From contig NZ_ALWX01000022.1 of NCBI RefSeq assembly GCF_000297495.1, positions 124,001-188,000 of the forward strand: 64,000 nucleotides of DNA, given 5' to 3'. The notes beneath the pieces were generated by a model. That model saw only the letters and a list, made by a program, of their open reading frames with translations, had not been told where the DNA came from and searched no databases. Of the stretch, positions 36,781 to 52,327 are shown in pieces (position 1 is the first letter of the stretch; each line of letters opens with the position of its first letter). Both the position numbers and the translations under genes were made by a program. This DNA is from Janibacter hoylei PVAS-1 (GTDB lineage Bacteria; Actinomycetota; Actinomycetes; Actinomycetales; Dermatophilaceae).

Positions 36781-38024
36781 GCACCCCCACCCGCCGTACC
36801 GTCATGCGCGTCGCCGCCGCGAGCGGCGCGACGATCACCCTCTCGGCTGCGGCTGGTGCGAGTGCCGCCTCCGCGGCCACCACCCGCAGCCGCAAGCGGG
36901 TCTACGTGCTCGTCACCGACGGGCTGCGCCCGGACGAGATCACCGTCGCGCGCACGCCCAACCTCCACCAGCTGCGCTCGACGGGAGCCTGGTACCCCAA
37001 CGCGCGATCGCTGCCCATCATGGAGACGATCCCCAACCACGTCATGATGATGACGGGGGTGCGACCGGACCGTAACGGCGTGCCGGCCAACAAGATCTAC
37101 GACCGCACGCTCGGCGAGGTCCGCGACATGGACCGCGAGAGCGACATCAAGGCCCCGACGATCTTCGAGCAGCTCGAGACGAAGGGGGTGACCGGCGGCA
37201 CCGTCCTGTCCAAGGACTACCTCTACGGGATCTTCGGCGAAAAGGCGATGTACCGCTGGGAGCCCAAGCCGCTCATGCCGATCACCGACCACGCGCCCGA
37301 CGGCTACACCTACGACGCCCTGGTCAAGATGATCGGCGCCGCCGACCCCAACCTCGTCTTCGCCAACTTCGGCGACATCGACCGGGTCGGGCACGCAGAC
37401 CCCGGTGGCACGGTCACCGTCCCGGCCATGCGCTACGCGGCCCTCAACAACACCGACCGTCTGATCGGCAACTTCGTCAGCTACCTCAAGTCGACCAACC
37501 GGTGGAAGGACTCGCTCGTCATCGTCCTCGCGGACCACTCGATGGACTGGTCCATGGGCCACCGGGTCATCTCGCTCGGGGCGCCGATCTGGTTCGACCG
37601 CACGCTGCGCGACAACGTCGAGATCGCGCAGAACGGCGGAGCGGACTGCCTCTACTGGACCGGGCCCGCCGGTGGCAGGGCGGCCGGGCTGAAGCGCCTG
37701 CGCGAGCTCGTCCTCAAGCAGCAGGGCGTGCTGTCCGTGCACACGCCCGCCGAGCTGCGTCTGAGCCCCAACGCCGGCGACCTCGTCGTCTACTGCAAGG
37801 CGGGGTGGCGCTTCTCCGACCCGACGATCTTCAACAACCCCATCCCGGGCAACCACGGGCACCCGGTGACCAAGCCGATCCCCTTCATCGTGGCCGGCGG
37901 AGCCGCCCAGGTGAGGCCCGGGGTGCGCACCGCGGTCGCGCACACGATGGACGTCGCGCCGACGATCGCGCAGTACTTCGGCCTGCCGACGACGGGATAT
38001 GACGGGAGATCGCGTCTGGTCTGA
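36777..38024 (+). CDS. Tat-exported alkaline phosphatase-superfamily phosphodiesterase
   Basis: Type I phosphodiesterase/nucleotide pyrophosphatase-like enzyme, 415 residues. A twin-arginine signal ([20 protein letters not shown], cleavage after SAASA) precedes the catalytic domain. Alkaline phosphatase-superfamily metal sites are visible: [15 protein letters not shown] (first Asp), [20 protein letters not shown] with the probable nucleophile Thr in [32 protein letters not shown] and [16 protein letters not shown]. It is coupled to PhoD by an ATGA overlap, so the two exported enzymes probably degrade phosphodiesters outside the cell in sequence. lepA follows 49 nt later. Confidence 0.9.
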
Positions 38025-38073
38025 GAGGATGGGCCACTGAGCCCTGTCCCGACGAACCCGAGGTCCGCAACCC

Positions 38074-39930
<1,857 letters not shown>

Positions 39931-46035: not shown

Positions 46036-47154
46036 GTGAACGACTACTACGAGGATCTGGGCGTCAGCCGCGAGGCCACGCCCGAGGAGATCAAGCGGGC
46101 GTACCGCAAGCTCGCCCGCACCCTGCACCCTGACGTCAACCCCGGCCCCGAGGCGGAGGAGCAGTTCAAGCGGGTCTCGCAGGCCTACGACGTCCTCTCC
46201 GACGAGACGAAGCGCCGCCAGTACGACATGGGCGGTGACCCCTACGGCGGTGCGCACGAGGGCTTCGGTGCCGGCTTCAGCTTCAGCGACATCATGGAGC
46301 AGTTCTTCGGCCAGGCCGCGGGCGGCGGTCGTGGGCCGCGCTCGCGCTCCTCACGTGGGCAGGACGGCCTCGTGGGTCTCGAGATCGACCTCGCGACGGC
46401 GGTCTTCGGCGGCGAGCAGGACCTGACGATCGACACCGCGGCGGTGTGCGGCTCGTGCTCCGGCGACGGGGCCCAGCCCGGCACCGGTCGCCGCACGTGC
46501 GACACCTGTGGTGGACGCGGTGAGGTCCAGCAGGTGCAGCGCTCCTTCCTCGGCCAGGTGATGACGAGCCGTCCGTGCCCGACCTGCCAGGGCTTCGGCG
46601 AGGTCATCCCGAGCCCCTGCCACGAGTGCTCCGGCCAGGGCCGCGTGCGCAGCCGCCGCACGATGAAGGTGCGCATCCCCGCCGGTGTCGACACCGGCAC
46701 CCGCATCCACCTCGCCGGCGAAGGGGAAGTCGGTCCCGGTGGTGGGCCGGCCGGCGACCTCTACGTCGAGCTGCGGGTCGCCGAGCACGAGACCTTCACC
46801 CGGCGCGGCGACGACCTGCACGCATCGGTCGCGGTACCGATGACGGCAGCCGCCCTCGGCGTGACGATGAGCTTTGCCACCCTCGACGGCGAGCAGGAGA
46901 TCACCATCAAGCGGGGCACCCAGCCCGGCGACACGATCGTCCTGCCCGGGCTCGGCGTGACCCATCTGCGGCACGAAGGGCGTGGCGACCTCGTCATCCA
47001 CGTCGACGTGCGCACCCCGACCAAGCTCGATGCCGAGCAGGAGCAGCTGCTGCGCGACCTCGCGCGGCTGCGTGACGAGGAGCAGCCCGACGGCGAGCTC
47101 CACGACGTCGACTCCGGCTTCGTCGGACGCCTGCGGCACGCCTTCAAGCGCTGA
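46036..47154 (+). CDS. dnaJ: Chaperone DnaJ (Hsp40)
   Basis: DnaK co-chaperone, 372 residues. The J domain starts [20 protein letters not shown] with HPD in [15 protein letters not shown]-rich stretch follows, then four CxxCxGxG zinc repeats: [24 protein letters not shown] and CHECSGQG. The two C-terminal peptide-binding domains come last. The GTG at 46036 begins the J domain exactly, so upstream reading is unlikely. This is the hrcA-linked DnaJ2 of actinobacteria (a second dnaJ is usually in the dnaK operon, not seen here). Heat regulation through CIRCE is expected. Confidence 0.96.
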
Positions 47155-47172
47155 CGGCCCGGACGCCGCGCG

Positions 47173-47952
47173 ATGTTGCGCCGCTTCGTCGGCCTCGACG
47201 GCACACCGCAGGCGTCGGCGGCGCTCGAGACGTCGCTGCGCACCACCCCTGAGCAGCTCGGGCCGGTGCGCGCCCGGCACACCGTGCCCGCCGCCTCGCG
47301 TCCCGTGGCGGCCCTGCTCGCGGTCGTCGGGGTCGTGGTGGTCCTGGCCGTCGCGACCGCGACCGTGCTCGTGGTGCTCGGCGCGCTGCCGGCGGCCGCC
47401 GTCCTGTGCCCTCTGGCCATCGGGGTGGCCGTGGCCGTGCTCGTCGGGGTGGGTCTCGCGGCCACCCACGACAGCCGGGGCATCGAGGTGCGCGCCCACG
47501 GCCTGATCGTCGGCTCGCGCCCGGTCCCCTTCGCGACGATGGACCCCGGCCGCATGGTGTGGGCGACGTCCGCCCGGGCTGCCCGCTCCGTCGTCACGCT
47601 CGCCCGGCGCCGCCGGGTGGCCGGCGGGGAGTGCCTGCTGCTCAACGGCACCGACGGGCCCGACGCCGTCGACGACTGGCGAGGCCTCGGGGGCAGGTAC
47701 GACCCGTTGCCGCGGGCCCCGCGGCTGGACACCCCCTTCGTCTGGTGGGCGCTCGGCCCGCGCGACGTCGGCGCCTTCGTCCGTGACCTCGAGGCGGCGA
47801 TGGTCGCCGACGGCTACCCCGTGCACGGGCTCGCCGACCACCTGGCGCGGCACCGGACCGACGTGCCGGCCGGTCGCGAGGCCCTCCCGCGCCGGGCGCC
47901 GCACGACCCGCCGCTGTGGCGGGCCCGACCAGGGGCAGGATTGGGGCCATGA
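47173..47952 (+). CDS. Uncharacterised two-helix membrane protein, paralogue A
   Basis: A 259-residue protein of no family I can name. It has a short N-tail and two hydrophobic helices (about 43-65 and 70-95). A cytoplasmic or exposed domain follows, with RPVPFATMDPGRMVWATSAR and, near the end, TPFVWWALGPRDVGAFVRDL then EAAMVADGYPVHGLADHL. The same blocks recur in the gene at 48686-49471, so the two are paralogues flanking rsmE. The stop overlaps the rsmE start (ATGA), and dnaJ ends 18 nt upstream, so it lies in the hrcA-dnaJ-rsmE transcript. Confidence 0.78.
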   Translation: MLRRFVGLDGTPQASAALETSLRTTPEQLGPVRARHTVPAASRPVAALLAVVGVVVVLAVATATVLVVLGALPAAAVLCPLAIGVAVAVLVGVGLAATHDSRGIEVRAHGLIVGSRPVPFATMDPGRMVWATSARAARSVVTLARRRRVAGGECLLLNGTDGPDAVDDWRGLGGRYDPLPRAPRLDTPFVWWALGPRDVGAFVRDLEAAMVADGYPVHGLADHLARHRTDVPAGREALPRRAPHDPPLWRARPGAGLGP

Positions 47953-48689
47953 CCGCACCACTCTTCGTCGTCGACCCCGGTGCCCTCGACCGTCTCGGGG
48001 TCGCCGACGTCGTCGACCTCACCGGGCCGGAGGCCCACCACGCCGCGGCCGTCGTGCGGCTCGCGGTGGGGGAGCACGTGCTCGTCGCCGACCGGCAGGG
48101 CGCCCGCGTGCTCACCGAGGTCACCGAGGTCGCCCGAGAGCTGGTGCGGCTGCGGGTGCTCCAGCGCGCCGACGAGCCGGAGCCTTCCCTCCGCCTGACG
48201 CTCGTGCAGGCCCTGGCCAAGGACGGGCGGGACGAGGACGCCGTCGAGGCCGCCACCGAGCTCGGCGTCGACACCGTCGTCCCGTGGCAGGCCGACCGGT
48301 CGATCGTGCGGTGGAAGGGCCCCAAGGTCGACAAGGGCCTGCGCAAGTGGGCCAATGTCGTCGAGCGGGCCGCGAAGCAGTCGCGGCGCGGCCGGTGGCC
48401 CCAGGTCGACGGGCTCGTCACGAGCTCCGCCCTCGCCCAGCGCTGCGCGGGCGCGACGACCTTCGTGCTGCACGAGGACGCGACGACCCCGCTGGCCACC
48501 GCGCCGCTCCCGGACTCCGGCGAGGTCTTGCTCGTCGTCGGGCCCGAAGGGGGGATCTCGCCCCAGGAGCTCGAGGCCTTCGTCGCCGCTGGCGCCACGC
48601 CCGTGCGGCTGGGGGCGCAGGTCCTGCGCGCCTCGACCGCCGGGCCGGCCGCCATCGCGGTCATCAGCGCACGAGGCCGCTGGACGTGA
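47949..48689 (+). CDS. rsmE: 16S rRNA (uracil-1498-N3)-methyltransferase RsmE
   Basis: Methylates U1498 of 16S rRNA; SPOUT-class enzyme with trefoil knot, 246 residues. The N-terminal PUA-like domain contains LTGPEAHHAAAVVRLAVGEH. The conserved catalytic-domain blocks are LVQALAKDGRDEDAVEAATE, VVERAAKQSRRGRWPQV, LLVVGPEGGISPQELEAFVA and RLGAQVLRASTAGPAAIAVI. This matches the well-known dnaJ-rsmE order. Both ends overlap the flanking paralogous membrane-protein genes by four bases (ATGA and GTGA), so the three are tightly coupled. Confidence 0.95.
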   Translation: MTAPLFVVDPGALDRLGVADVVDLTGPEAHHAAAVVRLAVGEHVLVADRQGARVLTEVTEVARELVRLRVLQRADEPEPSLRLTLVQALAKDGRDEDAVEAATELGVDTVVPWQADRSIVRWKGPKVDKGLRKWANVVERAAKQSRRGRWPQVDGLVTSSALAQRCAGATTFVLHEDATTPLATAPLPDSGEVLLVVGPEGGISPQELEAFVAAGATPVRLGAQVLRASTAGPAAIAVISARGRWT

Positions 48690-49471
48690 CGCGCCAGTAC
48701 TACGCCTGGGCCGGCGGGACCCCGGACGACCACGCCGCGCTGGCCCGCATGTCAGCTGCCGGCCCGGCCGACATGGGGCCGCTGCTCGCGTCCTTCCGGG
48801 GCGGGGTCGGCGCCCGGGCCCTGGGGCGCTCGCTCGCCCTCCTCGCGCTCGTCTGCGTCGGGCTCGGCGCGATGGTGGCCGGGCTCGCCCCCGGCGGGCC
48901 CTCGCTCGCGCTCGTCGTCGGGGCGTGGTGCGTCGCGGCCGCGGTGTACCTCCCGGCCATGCTCGTCGTCCACCTGGCCGCCCGCCGCACCCGGCAGGAC
49001 GTCCACCGCCACGGGCTCGTCGTCCGCGGCCCGGGGAGTCGGGCCGAGGCGCTGCCCTGGGAGTCGATGGACCCCGGCCGCATCTTCATCGCGACGAGCG
49101 TCCGCGCGATGACGCGGATGCCGCTCGCCCTGCCCCGCCAGCAGGCGGTCCTGCCCCCGGGCGTCGTCGTCAACGCCTGGACCGACCGCCCACTCGGGTC
49201 GCTGCCGGTCGCCGAGGCGCTCTCCCAGGGGTACCGGTACCAACCGGCTCCCACCGACAGCCCCTTCGGCTGGTGGCAGCTCGGGCCGAGCGACCCGCGA
49301 GCCTTCCTCCAGGCGGTCGAGGCGGCGATGGTCGCCGACGGCTACCCCGCGGCGGGACTGACCCCCTTCGTCCTCGCCCGCAGGGTGCGTGCCGGTGACC
49401 TGCGCCGCGCCCCTGAGCTGCAGCGGGAGCGGGCCCTCGTCGACCCGGTCGTGGGGCTGCCGCAGGGCTGA
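48686..49471 (+). CDS. Uncharacterised two-helix membrane protein, paralogue B
   Basis: A 261-residue protein with two hydrophobic helices (about 46-70 and 75-97). LPWESMDPGRIFIATSVRAM comes next, then DSPFGWWQLGPSDPRAFLQA followed by VEAAMVADGYPAAGL. These match paralogue A (47173-47952) block for block, including MDPGR, the WWxLGPxDxxAF motif and EAAMVADGYP, while the N-terminal 40 residues differ. GTG start inside the rsmE stop (GTGA). I know no function; duplicated genes around rsmE suggest tandem duplication with the methyltransferase left between. phoH follows after 50 bp. Confidence 0.78.
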   Translation: MTRQYYAWAGGTPDDHAALARMSAAGPADMGPLLASFRGGVGARALGRSLALLALVCVGLGAMVAGLAPGGPSLALVVGAWCVAAAVYLPAMLVVHLAARRTRQDVHRHGLVVRGPGSRAEALPWESMDPGRIFIATSVRAMTRMPLALPRQQAVLPPGVVVNAWTDRPLGSLPVAEALSQGYRYQPAPTDSPFGWWQLGPSDPRAFLQAVEAAMVADGYPAAGLTPFVLARRVRAGDLRRAPELQRERALVDPVVGLPQG

Positions 49472-49521: not shown

Positions 49522-50574
49522 ATGCCTCCATCAGACCAGCCCGACCTGCGCGCCCTCGACGCGATCTCCGACGACCCGCGCGCCACCGCGCACGAGCGCG
49601 GCACCCGCTCCCGGCAGACGATCGTCCTGCCGGACAACGTGCCGATGGTCAACATCCTCGGTCCGACGGACGAGCTCCTGCGGACCATGGAGCGCGCCTT
49701 CCCCAAGACCGAGATCCTCGTGCGCGGCAACGAGTTCCGCCTCGAGGGGCCGACCGAGGACCTCGCGATCATCGACCGTCTCCTCGACGAGGTCATGGAG
49801 ATCGTCGAGGCCGGCCAGCCGCTCAACCGCGATGCCATCGAGCGCTCGATCACCATGCTGCGGGGGCAGACCCGGGAGCGGCCCGCTGACGTGCTGACGA
49901 TGAACATCGTCTCCAACCGCGGCCGCACCATCCGGCCCAAGACCCTCGGGCAGAAGCACTACGTCGACGCCATCGGCGACAACACGGTGATCTTCGGCAT
50001 CGGGCCGGCCGGCACCGGCAAGACCTACCTGGCGATGGCCAAGGCGGTCGCGGCACTGCAGGCCAAGGAGGTCAGCCGGATCATCCTCACCAGGCCCGCG
50101 GTCGAGGCCGGCGAAAAGCTCGGCTTCCTCCCGGGCACCCTCGGCGACAAGATCGACCCCTACCTGCGGCCGCTCTACGACGCCCTGCACGACATGATCG
50201 ACCCCGACTCGATCCCGCGGCTCATGGCCGCCGGCACCATCGAGGTCGCCCCCCTGGCCTTCATGCGCGGCCGCACCCTCAACGACTCCTTCATCATCCT
50301 CGACGAGGCGCAGAACACCTCGCCCGAGCAGATGAAGATGTTCCTCACCCGCCTCGGCTTCGGCTCGAAGATGGTCGTCACCGGCGACACGAGCCAGGTC
50401 GACCTGCCCGGCGGGATGGAGTCCGGCCTCAAGGTCGTCCAGCGCATCCTCACCGACATCGAGGGCGTCCACTTCGCCCACCTCGACGCCTCCGACGTCG
50501 TCCGCCACCGGCTCGTCGGGGAGATCGTCGGGGCCTACGACCGATACGACGCGACGAAGGGGCAGCGCCGATGA
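49522..50574 (+). CDS. phoH: PhoH-like ATPase
   Basis: Cytoplasmic PhoH/YbeZ-type ATPase with presumed RNA-related role, 350 residues. Walker A is [20 protein letters not shown], Walker [21 protein letters not shown], followed by [20 protein letters not shown]. The N-terminal [15 protein letters not shown] is the KH-like region. It is coupled to ybeY through an ATGA overlap, the widespread phoH-ybeY-CNNM-era arrangement, which ties it to rRNA processing. A TAGAAT box at 49506-49511 lies 10 nt before the ATG, so there may be an internal promoter. Confidence 0.95.
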
Positions 50575-51041
50575 GCATCGACGTGCTCAACGAGACCGAC
50601 CACGACGTCGACGAGGTCGAGTTCGTCGACCTCAGCCGCTACGTGCTCGAGCAGATGCGCGTGCACCCGCAGGCCGAGCTGTGCATCCGCTTCGTCGACG
50701 AGGCGACGATGACCGTCCTGCACGAGCAGTGGATGGACCTCGCCGGCCCGACCGACGTCATGAGCTTCCCGATGGACGAGCTGCGGCCCGGTCGCGAGGG
50801 CGAGACCTCCGCCGAGGGGGTCCTCGGCGACATCGTCGTGTGCCCGTCGGTCGCGGAGCGGCAGGCCGCCGCAGCGGGCCACGCCGCCATCGAGGAGATG
50901 CTCCTGCTGACGACGCACGGGATCCTCCACCTGCTCGGCTACGACCACGCGGAGCCCGACGAGGAAAAGGAGATGTTCGAGCTGCAACGCCAGCTGCTGC
51001 TCACCTTCCTCGCCGGCCGCGGCCGGGAGGCCCAGGGGTGA
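50571..51041 (+). CDS. ybeY: Endoribonuclease YbeY
   Basis: Zn-dependent RNase for 16S rRNA 3' maturation and 70S quality control, 156 residues. The metal motif [11 protein letters not shown] (HxxxHxxGYDH) is intact, followed by [16 protein letters not shown]. The conserved [11 protein letters not shown] and [14 protein letters not shown] are present. Starts inside the phoH stop (ATGA) and ends inside the next start (GTGA), so it is translated as part of a coupled chain. Confidence 0.95.
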
Positions 51042-52327
51042 CCACCCTGATCATCGGCGCGGTCGTCGCGATCGTCGCCGCCTTCGTCCTCACCCTCGTC
51101 GACGCCGCCATCGGCTCGGCCTCCCGCGTCGCCGCGGAGGAGGCCGACAGCGCGGGACGAAGGGGGGCACCCGCCCTGCGCCAGATCCTCGCCGACAGCG
51201 CGGGACCGATCTCCGTCATCGCCTTCCTCCGGGCCATCGCCGAGGCGAGCGCGGCCGTGCTCATCACCCTCGTCGTCGTCGGGCAGGTCGAGCGGACCTG
51301 GGTCGCGCTGCTCGTCTCCGCCGGGATCATGGTCGTCGTCACCTTCGTCCTCGTCGGGGTCTCCCCACGGACCCTCGGGCAGCAGCACAGCACGCCGATC
51401 GCGCTCGCCGCGGCGCCCGCGGTCATCGGGCTGCGTCGCGTGCTGGGCCCCTTCGCCCGGCTGCTCGTCACCTTCGGCAACGCGGTGACGCCGGGGCGCG
51501 GCTACCGCGACGGGCCCTTCCGCTCCGAGGCCGAGCTGCGCGACCTGCTCGACCTCGCGGGGGAGTCCGCGCTCATCGAGGACGAGGAGCGCGACATGCT
51601 CCACTCGGTCTTCGAGCTCGGCGACACCATGGCCAGCGAGGTCATGGTCCCGCGCACCGACATGATCACTATCGAGTCGGACAAGCCGGCGCGCAAGGGG
51701 CTCAACCTCTTCATCCGCTCCGGCTTCTCCCGCGTCCCCGTCGTGGGGGAGTCGAGCGACGACATCGTCGGCCTGCTCTACCTCAAGGACGTCGTGCGCC
51801 GCCTGCTGGCCGACGAGACGAGCCGTGATCTGCCGGTCTCGCAGTTCATGCGGCCGGCTCCCTTCGTCCCCGAGAGCAAGCCCGTCGACCACCTGCTGCG
51901 CGAGATGCAGCGCGACCAGATCCACGCCGCGATCGTCGTCGACGAGTACGGCGGCACTGCCGGCCTGGTGACGATCGAGGACATCCTCGAGGAGATCGTC
52001 GGCGAGATCACCGATGAGTACGACCGCGAGGGGCCCGGTGTCGAGGAGCTCGACGACGGCCGATACCGGGTGCCGGCGGGGCTGCACGTCGACGACCTCG
52101 CCGAGCTGCTCGACGTCGACCTCGAGGACGAGGAGGTCGACACCGTCGGTGGCCTCATCGGCAAGATCACCGGCCGGGTGCCGATCGTCGGCACGACCTG
52201 CGAGGTCGCCGGCCTGCGGCTCACGGCTGAGAAGATGTCCGGACGACAGCACCGGATCGCGACCGTCATCGTCGAGAGGACGGCACCGGTGCGCGACGGG
52301 CACGAGCACGAGGAGGTCGACGCATGA
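51038..52327 (+). CDS. CNNM/CorC-HlyC family membrane protein
   Basis: Hemolysin-C/CorC-like transporter-associated protein, 429 residues, probable Mg2+/Co2+ efflux. An N-terminal DUF21/CNNM transmembrane domain (three to four helices, about 1-150) is followed by two CBS domains. The region [20 protein letters not shown] marks CBS1, and [20 protein letters not shown] with [14 protein letters not shown] marks CBS2. A C-terminal CorC domain comes last ([28 protein letters not shown]). The GTG at 51038 overlaps the ybeY stop and the TGA overlaps the era ATG. Longer upstream reading runs over ybeY and is not conserved. Confidence 0.92.

What the first reader, a model, noticed from the sequence alone, without database searches (positions are those of the whole stretch)
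47173..49471. Paralogous unknown membrane proteins flank rsmE
Genes A and B, on either side of rsmE, share MDPGR(M/I), TPF/SPF-x-WW-x-LGPxDxxAF and EAAMVADGYP with two hydrophobic helices. All three genes are joined by 4-nt overlaps. This implies an old tandem duplication around rsmE and a stable, uncharacterised family attached to the hrcA-dnaJ-rsmE-phoH-era block.
Basis: partly seen in the sequence, partly recalled or inferred. Interest (0 to 1): 0.5.

Follow-up and report, generated by a model that had tools for sequence, protein, structure and literature searches.

The report
Orphan toxin-immunity genes flanking rsmE
Two related membrane-protein genes on either side of the housekeeping gene rsmE are most likely leftover antidote genes from bacterial toxin cassettes that related species still carry in the same two places, so they point to an unstudied bacterial weapon system rather than to a partner of rsmE.

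Summary
In detail: A (47173-47952) and B (48686-49471) flank rsmE through ATGA and GTGA overlaps and are paralogues (37% identity, E 3e-23) without a Pfam or NCBIfam match. The window is from a Janibacter genome.

The interpretation changes. In other Janibacter, and in two other families of the order, A/B-type genes end a cassette: WXG100-type (type VII secretion) effector, acidic soluble protein, A/B-type membrane protein. Cassettes sit in the dnaJ-rsmE and rsmE-phoH slots, and elsewhere. The soluble gene is always beside a WXG gene (11 of 11 Janibacter copies); the membrane gene is an orphan in 11 of 17 (one of them a fragment), also in four genomes without such WXG proteins. Orphans have no adjacent cassette gene. 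A and B belong to separate clades. Window A is 98.9% identical to J. anophelis A at fourfold sites, against 66-78% for seven of nine neighbouring genes: exchange through dnaJ and rsmE.

Best reading: A and B are retained immunity genes against type VII-secreted, probably membrane-acting toxins, paralleling staphylococcal ExiCD but with another predicted architecture (helical hairpin in a PH-like domain). No function was tested. Stable attachment to rsmE is not supported.

The parts
47173..47952 (+). gene A: orphan cassette membrane protein, A clade (linked to beta-type effectors in G151 and G149)
   Evidence: 97% aa identity to J. anophelis A
47296..47469 (+). predicted transmembrane helical hairpin of A (model helices 42-69 and 72-99)
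   Evidence: AlphaFold2 model, mean pLDDT 64
47542..47553 (+). DPGR motif of A
   Evidence: sequence; D, P and R invariant and G nearly invariant in 20 aligned members
47949..48689 (+). rsmE; the conserved anchor between two variable slots, not a cassette member
   Evidence: present in 16 of 16 Janibacter
47949..47952 (+). ATGA overlap of A stop and rsmE start
48686..49471 (+). gene B: orphan cassette membrane protein, clade of G117 whose copy follows an alpha-type effector
48686..48689 (+). GTGA overlap of rsmE stop and B start
48812..48985 (+). predicted transmembrane helical hairpin of B (model helices 43-67 and 74-100)
   Evidence: AlphaFold2 model, mean pLDDT 65
49070..49081 (+). DPGR motif of B
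   Evidence: sequence
47137..48131 (.). tract about 99% identical to J. anophelis (end of dnaJ, all of A, first ~180 bases of rsmE) inside sequence that is mostly 80-93% identical on both sides

Best explanation
A and B are retained (orphan) immunity genes of type VII secretion toxin cassettes. The full cassette encodes (1) a secreted effector with an N-terminal WXG100-type domain and a hydrophobic C-terminal region that probably acts on membranes, (2) an acidic soluble protein that goes with the effector, probably as chaperone or inhibitor before export, and (3) the A/B-type protein, which sits in the cytoplasmic membrane by a helical hairpin with a PH-like domain, probably on the cytoplasmic side, and blocks the toxin arriving from neighbours. 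Cells that lost effector and soluble protein keep the third gene because competitors still fire the toxin. The dnaJ-rsmE and rsmE-phoH junctions are slots whose conserved flanks allow the genes to be swapped between strains by homologous recombination; this is why two paralogues flank rsmE. Shown: cassette, adjacency, orphan pattern, separate clades, exchange tract. Inferred: toxicity, immunity, topology, and what the soluble protein does.
For: (a) Cassette order WXG - soluble - A/B-type with short or overlapping junctions beside rsmE in G117, G138, G151 and the non-Janibacter G049, near lepA in J. anophelis; in G119 and in two other families (G303; G269, G321, G256) the same order with other N-terminal domains on the effector. 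(b) Secretion type: 8 of 8 aligned effectors hit WXG100 PF06013 (best 3.1e-7; weaker for most) and TIGR03930; their profile hits PDB EsxA 3zbh at 1.3e-6. The first gene of the G269 cassette is EspC-like over Pfam's cut-off. (c) The same WXG type is found in 11 of 16 Janibacter, the same 11 that carry an FHA-domain FtsK/EccC-type ATPase 81-89% identical to that of G153, with a small WXG100 gene beside it in 11 of 11; the window's genome is one of them (G000:C19). (d) Asymmetry: soluble gene beside a WXG gene in 11 of 11 copies (one pair decayed), membrane gene without either in 11 of 17; Fisher p 0.0009. (e) G144, G126, G150 and G154 keep an intact A/B-type gene with no WXG hit genome-wide, so the gene does not need the effector; G101, G153 and G152 have the secretion locus without the gene, so the locus does not need it. 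(f) The A/B-type gene follows the effector C-terminus: alpha type 9 of 9 by BLAST (11 of 11 with two assigned by eye), beta 2 of 3, gamma 0 of 3, while the soluble gene is in all. (g) Exchange tract over A, and B more diverged (41.5% at fourfold sites) than its neighbours.
Against: No toxicity or immunity was tested. G152 has two effector-plus-soluble pairs and no A/B-type gene in a 90% complete genome, so the gene is not obligatory for a producer. In four orphan genomes nothing shows that the toxin is met. Zipper-like motifs in effector C-termini are not more frequent than in shuffles, and only one effector (L069) gives a match to a pore-forming family that passes 0.01, far below the cut-off (NF041559, 22 of 150 bits). 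The Fisher test ignores kinship and shared slots. In A's clade only two members are cassette-linked, in B's own clade only one. The PH-like fold is weak (best Z 6.8 for B, 5.1 for A; Foldseek E above 0.05).
Confidence: 0.62

Rival explanations
1. The A/B-type protein is an accessory of the effector (membrane anchor, export adaptor or receptor), not its antidote; orphans are relics or have been put to another use. The soluble protein is the immunity factor.
For: The soluble protein is the more faithful partner of the effector (11 of 11), and in known systems soluble proteins can be the immunity factor (TipE for TelE, PMC10434224 passages; ExiAB for cytoplasmic EsxX, PMC12744356).
Against: Orphans are intact in ten of eleven cases and show dN/dS of 0.28-0.53 in seven of the ten pairs compared, all B-clade, so they are under constraint without the effector; of the rest, A_G000-A_G151 is 0.35, the two A genes of G149 0.69, and A_G000-A_G132 has too few changes. 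Cassettes of gamma type and one of beta type lack the gene.
Confidence: 0.17
2. A and B are envelope or lipid-sensing PH-like housekeeping proteins of Actinobacteria that were captured by toxin cassettes; in the window they keep the original envelope role.
For: A distant hairpin-plus-PH-like relative without DPGR, beside a NifS-like gene, occurs in the same genome, so the architecture is wider than cassettes; orphans exist in genomes without the secretion locus.
Against: Found in only 10 of 149 sampled Intrasporangiaceae and 10 of 396 sampled genomes of the order (a lower bound, since only the best candidates were scored), strongly patchy within one genus, exchanged between species, and truncated in G075.
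Confidence: 0.13
3. One reading: an old tandem duplication around rsmE made a stable family working with RsmE or ribosomes.
For: Translationally coupled overlaps with rsmE in the window; in Janibacter 16 of 17 copies lie beside rsmE.
Against: rsmE stands without the gene in 4 of 16 Janibacter; copies occur beside lepA, glnII, acs and an integrase; A and B clades have different effector partners; other cassette genes share the slots.
Confidence: 0.04

Closest known systems
EsxX / ExiAB / ExiCD of Staphylococcus aureus T7SSb (PMC12744356: abstract, first part of Results and the orphan-gene section seen)
   Same: Effector with a secretion-targeting N-terminus and hydrophobic toxic C-terminus; soluble genes that always accompany the effector; membrane immunity genes that also occur alone, even in genomes without effector or T7SS.
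   Different: Targeting domain is WXG100-type, not LXG; one soluble and one membrane gene instead of two pairs; the membrane protein has a predicted two-helix hairpin in a PH-like domain, not six transmembrane helices; actinobacterial; located in slots around housekeeping genes. No toxicity data here.
Tandem T7SS immunity arrays esaG, tipC, tsaI (PMC9484751: abstract and outline seen)
   Same: Non-identical immunity paralogues reshaped by homologous recombination.
   Different: There recombination runs between paralogues within an array; here the visible tract uses the conserved neighbours dnaJ and rsmE.
T7SSd of Actinomycetota (PMC11217815: passages seen)
   Same: FHA-domain FtsK-type ATPase, WXG100 protein and serine/threonine kinase in one locus (G153).
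   Different: TsdH and TsdI were not looked for; MoxR, DUF58 and transglutaminase genes are present here.
BTH_I2691 / Tke5 pore-forming T6SS effectors (PMC12909789: passages seen)
   Same: One beta-type effector C-terminus (L069, residues 140-259) aligns with positions 690-816 of the 858-position model, E 4.6e-5.
   Different: 22 bits against a cut-off of 150; no MIX domain; secretion type differs; the match may reflect hydrophobic composition.
Pfam DUF6232 / DUF6585
   Same: Weak hits of 3 and 4 of 20 members (best E 0.032 and 0.0054).
   Different: Below the curated cut-off where it was shown (DUF6232, 11.7 against 27.4 bits for B); not members on this evidence.

Membership tests
T7SS effector-immunity cassette | effector with a T7SS targeting domain (WXG100, LXG or LDXD) | tested here: met
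   PF06013 and TIGR03930 hits in 8 of 8 aligned effectors, most under the curated cut-offs; profile hits EsxA 3zbh E 1.3e-6
T7SS effector-immunity cassette | T7SS ATPase and WXG100 protein in the producing genome | tested here: met
   FHA/FtsK-type ATPase with small WXG100 gene in 11 of 11 Janibacter that have such effectors or WXG proteins. EccB: 0 of 16, control silent, so uninformative
T7SS effector-immunity cassette | C-terminal toxin activity | not testable with these tools
   only hydrophobic segments and one weak family hit
T7SS effector-immunity cassette | cognate gene directly next to the effector gene, varying with the effector C-terminus | tested here: met
   alpha 9 of 9 (11 of 11 with two by eye), beta 2 of 3, gamma 0 of 3
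Orphan immunity gene | immunity-type gene without its effector in the genome or locus | tested here: met
   11 of 17 Janibacter copies have no adjacent WXG or soluble gene; window genome has no soluble-gene hit
Orphan immunity gene | protects against the toxin | not testable with these tools
   needs an experiment
PH-like domain protein | PH-like beta barrel capped by a C-terminal helix | tested here: inconclusive
   B model: most listed rows are PH, PTB, FERM or FACT domains, Z 5.4-6.8, Foldseek best E 0.08; A model best Z 5.1; mean pLDDT 64-65
ExiC/ExiD (DUF5079/DUF5080) | six-helix membrane protein of these families | tested here: not met
   two-helix hairpin predicted; no such Pfam hit in A or B
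EspG-type chaperone (for the soluble protein) | match to the EspG family | tested here: inconclusive
[quoted passage not shown]
   WXG100, FHA-ATPase and kinase found in G153; TsdH and TsdI not searched

The most novel reading that the evidence does not exclude
The two rsmE junctions of Janibacter are recombination-anchored 'antitoxin islands' of an undescribed actinobacterial type VII antibacterial system, whose membrane immunity proteins use a new immunity architecture: a transmembrane hairpin inserted in a PH-like domain with an invariant DPxR motif.
Probability: 0.45. Interest if true: 0.62.

Novelty: new variant of a known kind. Interest (0 to 1): 0.5.

Why it matters
Antibacterial use of type VII secretion is documented mainly in Bacillota in the papers seen here. 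If A and B are immunity proteins, this gives a ready toxin, partner and antidote set in environmental Actinobacteria, an immunity protein family without a Pfam or NCBIfam entry, and a simple genomic marker (the rsmE slots) by which to read who fights whom within a genus. It also warns that conserved position beside a housekeeping gene need not mean shared function. Searches for Janibacter or Intrasporangiaceae with type VII secretion and for PH-type immunity proteins listed no paper on this system; only the top rows were seen.

Tried and rejected
Tandem duplication around rsmE and a role with RsmE: see rivals. EccB (PF05108): 0 of 16 Janibacter, but the 14 control genomes were silent too, so nothing follows. 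Glycine zippers: counts in effector C-termini do not exceed shuffles (of 500 shuffles, 48 to 227 reach the observed count in six of eight effectors that have motifs; two have none). The claim that the secretion ATPase is absent from the four orphan-only genomes had to be narrowed: G144, G150 and G154 show only the other, type-2 ATPase at the places listed, but G126 also has a divergent relative (41% identity) of the type-1 ATPase, without a WXG hit beside it. PDB by sequence: none for B or the A/B profile; for the soluble family only four hits at E 0.28 or worse. Plasmids searched with B and phages with A: no match; the other two combinations were not run. tRNAs beside five loci: none. The hit G000:C12 was first taken for spurious; its translation shows a real hairpin-plus-PH-like arrangement, so it is kept as a distant relative. 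It was left out of the 17 copies counted. The order-wide search scored only six candidates per genome, so 10 of 396 is a lower bound. Effectors L180 and L183 were typed as alpha by eye, not in the BLAST; L065c (proline-rich C-terminus) was not typed and is not in the alpha, beta or gamma counts. The effector of L042 matches the full WXG profile but not its N-terminal part at 1e-4.

Full report
Observation. Neither matches Pfam or NCBIfam at a meaningful level. The window is from Janibacter: the nearest named relatives are J. anophelis NBRC 107843 and a Janibacter MAG, and 15 genomes of the same genus were available besides its own. In the own genome a single-sequence search finds only A and B; a profile search adds one distant relative.

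What sits beside rsmE in the genus. All 16 genomes have rsmE between dnaJ and phoH, J. anophelis on two contigs that end between A and rsmE. The slot dnaJ-rsmE holds cassette genes in 5 of 16 (G000 A; G132 A; G149 A-like; G151 WXG-soluble-WXG-soluble-A; G152 WXG-soluble), an unrelated small gene in G101, and nothing in 10. The slot rsmE-phoH holds them in 12 of 16: a lone B-type gene in seven (G000, G132, G155, G144, G126, G150, G154), a 61-residue fragment in G075, WXG-soluble-B-type in G117, G138 and G151, and A-type-WXG-soluble in G149; it is empty in G153, G101, G152 and G038. Thus A and B are the surviving third gene of a cassette.

The cassette. The effectors (318-382 aa in the first eight) start with a WXG100-type domain: PF06013 and TIGR03930 hit 8 of 8, mostly below the curated cut-offs, and their profile hits PDB EsxA at 1.3e-6. 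Their C-termini are hydrophobic in seven of eight. The second gene encodes an acidic protein of 260-287 aa (net charge -18 to -24) with no family match that can be trusted. The third is the A/B type (20-member alignment: G30, V106, P119, D124, P125, R127, E207, A209, G214, G219 and R241 of A invariant). The same order effector - soluble - A/B-type is found in G049 (beside rsmE), J. anophelis and G119 (near lepA) and in four genomes' loci of two other families, where the effector has another N-terminal domain and, in G269, an EspC-like gene goes first. In J. anophelis the cassette lies between lepA and the next conserved gene; in the window these two are 79 bases apart (38002-39927 and 40007), an empty site.

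Secretion system. WXG proteins of this type occur in 11 of 16 Janibacter (12 hits in the window's genome, several fused to lipase-like or metallopeptidase-like regions). The same 11 carry an ATPase 81-89% identical to that of G153, each with a small WXG100 gene next to it. In G153 the locus encodes an FHA-FtsK ATPase, WXG100, serine/threonine kinase, MoxR, DUF58 and transglutaminase proteins, resembling T7SSd as described in passages of PMC11217815. The five others have no such WXG hit. G144, G150, G154 and G038 show only a second ATPase type at the places examined; G126 has in addition a 41% identical relative of the first type.

Who needs whom. Genome-wide in the genus, the soluble gene has 11 copies in 6 of 16 genomes, all 11 beside a WXG gene (one pair decayed, beside guaA in J. 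anophelis). The A/B type has 17 copies in 12 of 16 (one a fragment; the distant C12 relative not counted), 16 beside rsmE; 6 stand in a cassette and 11 have no adjacent cassette gene. Fisher p 0.0009, without correction for kinship. Both soluble and A/B type: 5 genomes; A/B type only: 7; soluble only: 1 (G152); neither: 3. Four genomes without any WXG hit keep an intact A/B-type gene. Conversely three genomes with the secretion locus lack it. This is the pattern reported for EsxX: exiAB always with esxX, exiCD also alone, even without T7SS (PMC12744356).

Specificity. BLAST of effector residues 101 to the end groups them: alpha (L037, L040, L043, L035, L065a, L042, L175, L177, L179; L180 and L183 added by eye), beta (L065b, L069, L073), gamma (L185, L186, L107), one untyped. 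The A/B-type gene directly follows alpha effectors in 9 of 9 (11 of 11), is next to beta in 2 of 3 (downstream in G151, upstream in G149) and absent from gamma loci (0 of 3), whereas the soluble gene is present in all. In the tree of 27 rows the A clade (window A, J. anophelis A, G151 upstream, G149 both) has support 100/100 and its two cassette-linked members go with beta effectors; B lies in an eight-row clade (100/99) whose one cassette-linked member, G117, goes with an alpha effector. So A and B look like antidotes to different toxins, not like copies of one gene made around rsmE.

Exchange. Between the window and J. anophelis, identity at fourfold sites is 98.9% for A, 97.5% for ybeY, 41.5% for B and 66.0-77.9% for the seven other genes compared. 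About 1 kb from the end of dnaJ through A into rsmE is some 99% identical. The A tract thus moved by recombination in conserved neighbours; B was replaced by, or descends from, a much older variant. A has 7 nonsynonymous and 2 synonymous changes there, too few for a claim; in the seven B-clade pairs dN/dS is 0.28-0.53, against 0.21-0.32 for rsmE of the same genomes. Outside the genus, G269 has a full cassette beside glnII; G256 has at that place an intact A/B-type gene and before it a fused remnant (by eye).

Structure. AlphaFold2 models of B and A (mean pLDDT 65 and 64, five sequences each) agree on one strand, a two-helix transmembrane hairpin, further strands and a C-terminal helix. For B, nearly all listed matches are PH, PTB, FERM or FACT domains, Z 5.4-6.8, below the level that would settle it; for A the list is short and weaker. 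Arginines flank the hairpin on both sides of the membrane span and none lie in its short loop, which by the positive-inside rule (general knowledge) puts the PH-like part in the cytoplasm.

Conclusion. Cassette membership and orphan state are well supported; immunity is the best explanation of the pattern but untested. The toxin's action on membranes rests on hydrophobic C-termini, the membrane location of the third protein and one weak match to Tke5-like pore formers, and is the least secure step.

Noticed in passing
G000:C12:1705-2283 (L132 1501-2079): Distant third relative of A/B in the window's genome: helical hairpin followed by a PH-like sequence with SIDPAS instead of DPGR, beside a NifS-like cysteine desulfurase gene.
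   Followed up: partly
window about 50331-51230: A second tract 97-100% identical to J. anophelis covers the end of phoH, ybeY and the start of the next gene, in a block otherwise mostly 80-95% identical: recombination here is not limited to cassette genes.
   Followed up: partly
L186 6840-7319 and 9342-9977; L185 5250-5699; L116 8790-9425: Beside guaA-linked gamma cassettes lie other small proteins with a C-terminal hydrophobic segment; in J. anophelis one is retained next to decayed WXG and soluble genes. Candidate second immunity family.
   Followed up: no
G000: C2, C45, C79, C37, C3, C92, C43, C13, C21 (L187-L195): The window's genome has about ten further WXG-domain proteins with varied C-termini, some lipase-like or metallopeptidase-like: a larger set of candidate type VII substrates.
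   Followed up: partly
G000:C11:26776-29461 (L106): The second, type-2 FtsK-type ATPase is split over reading frames in the window's genome: a broken gene or a sequencing error.
   Followed up: no
L041 6721-9708 (G074): An orphan A/B-type gene lies close to an integrase-like and a helix-turn-helix gene, suggesting carriage on a mobile island; no tRNA found in the fetched stretch.
   Followed up: partly
L067 8296-8697 (G101): The dnaJ-rsmE slot of this genome holds an unrelated small secreted-looking gene on the other strand, so the slot also takes other cargo.
   Followed up: no
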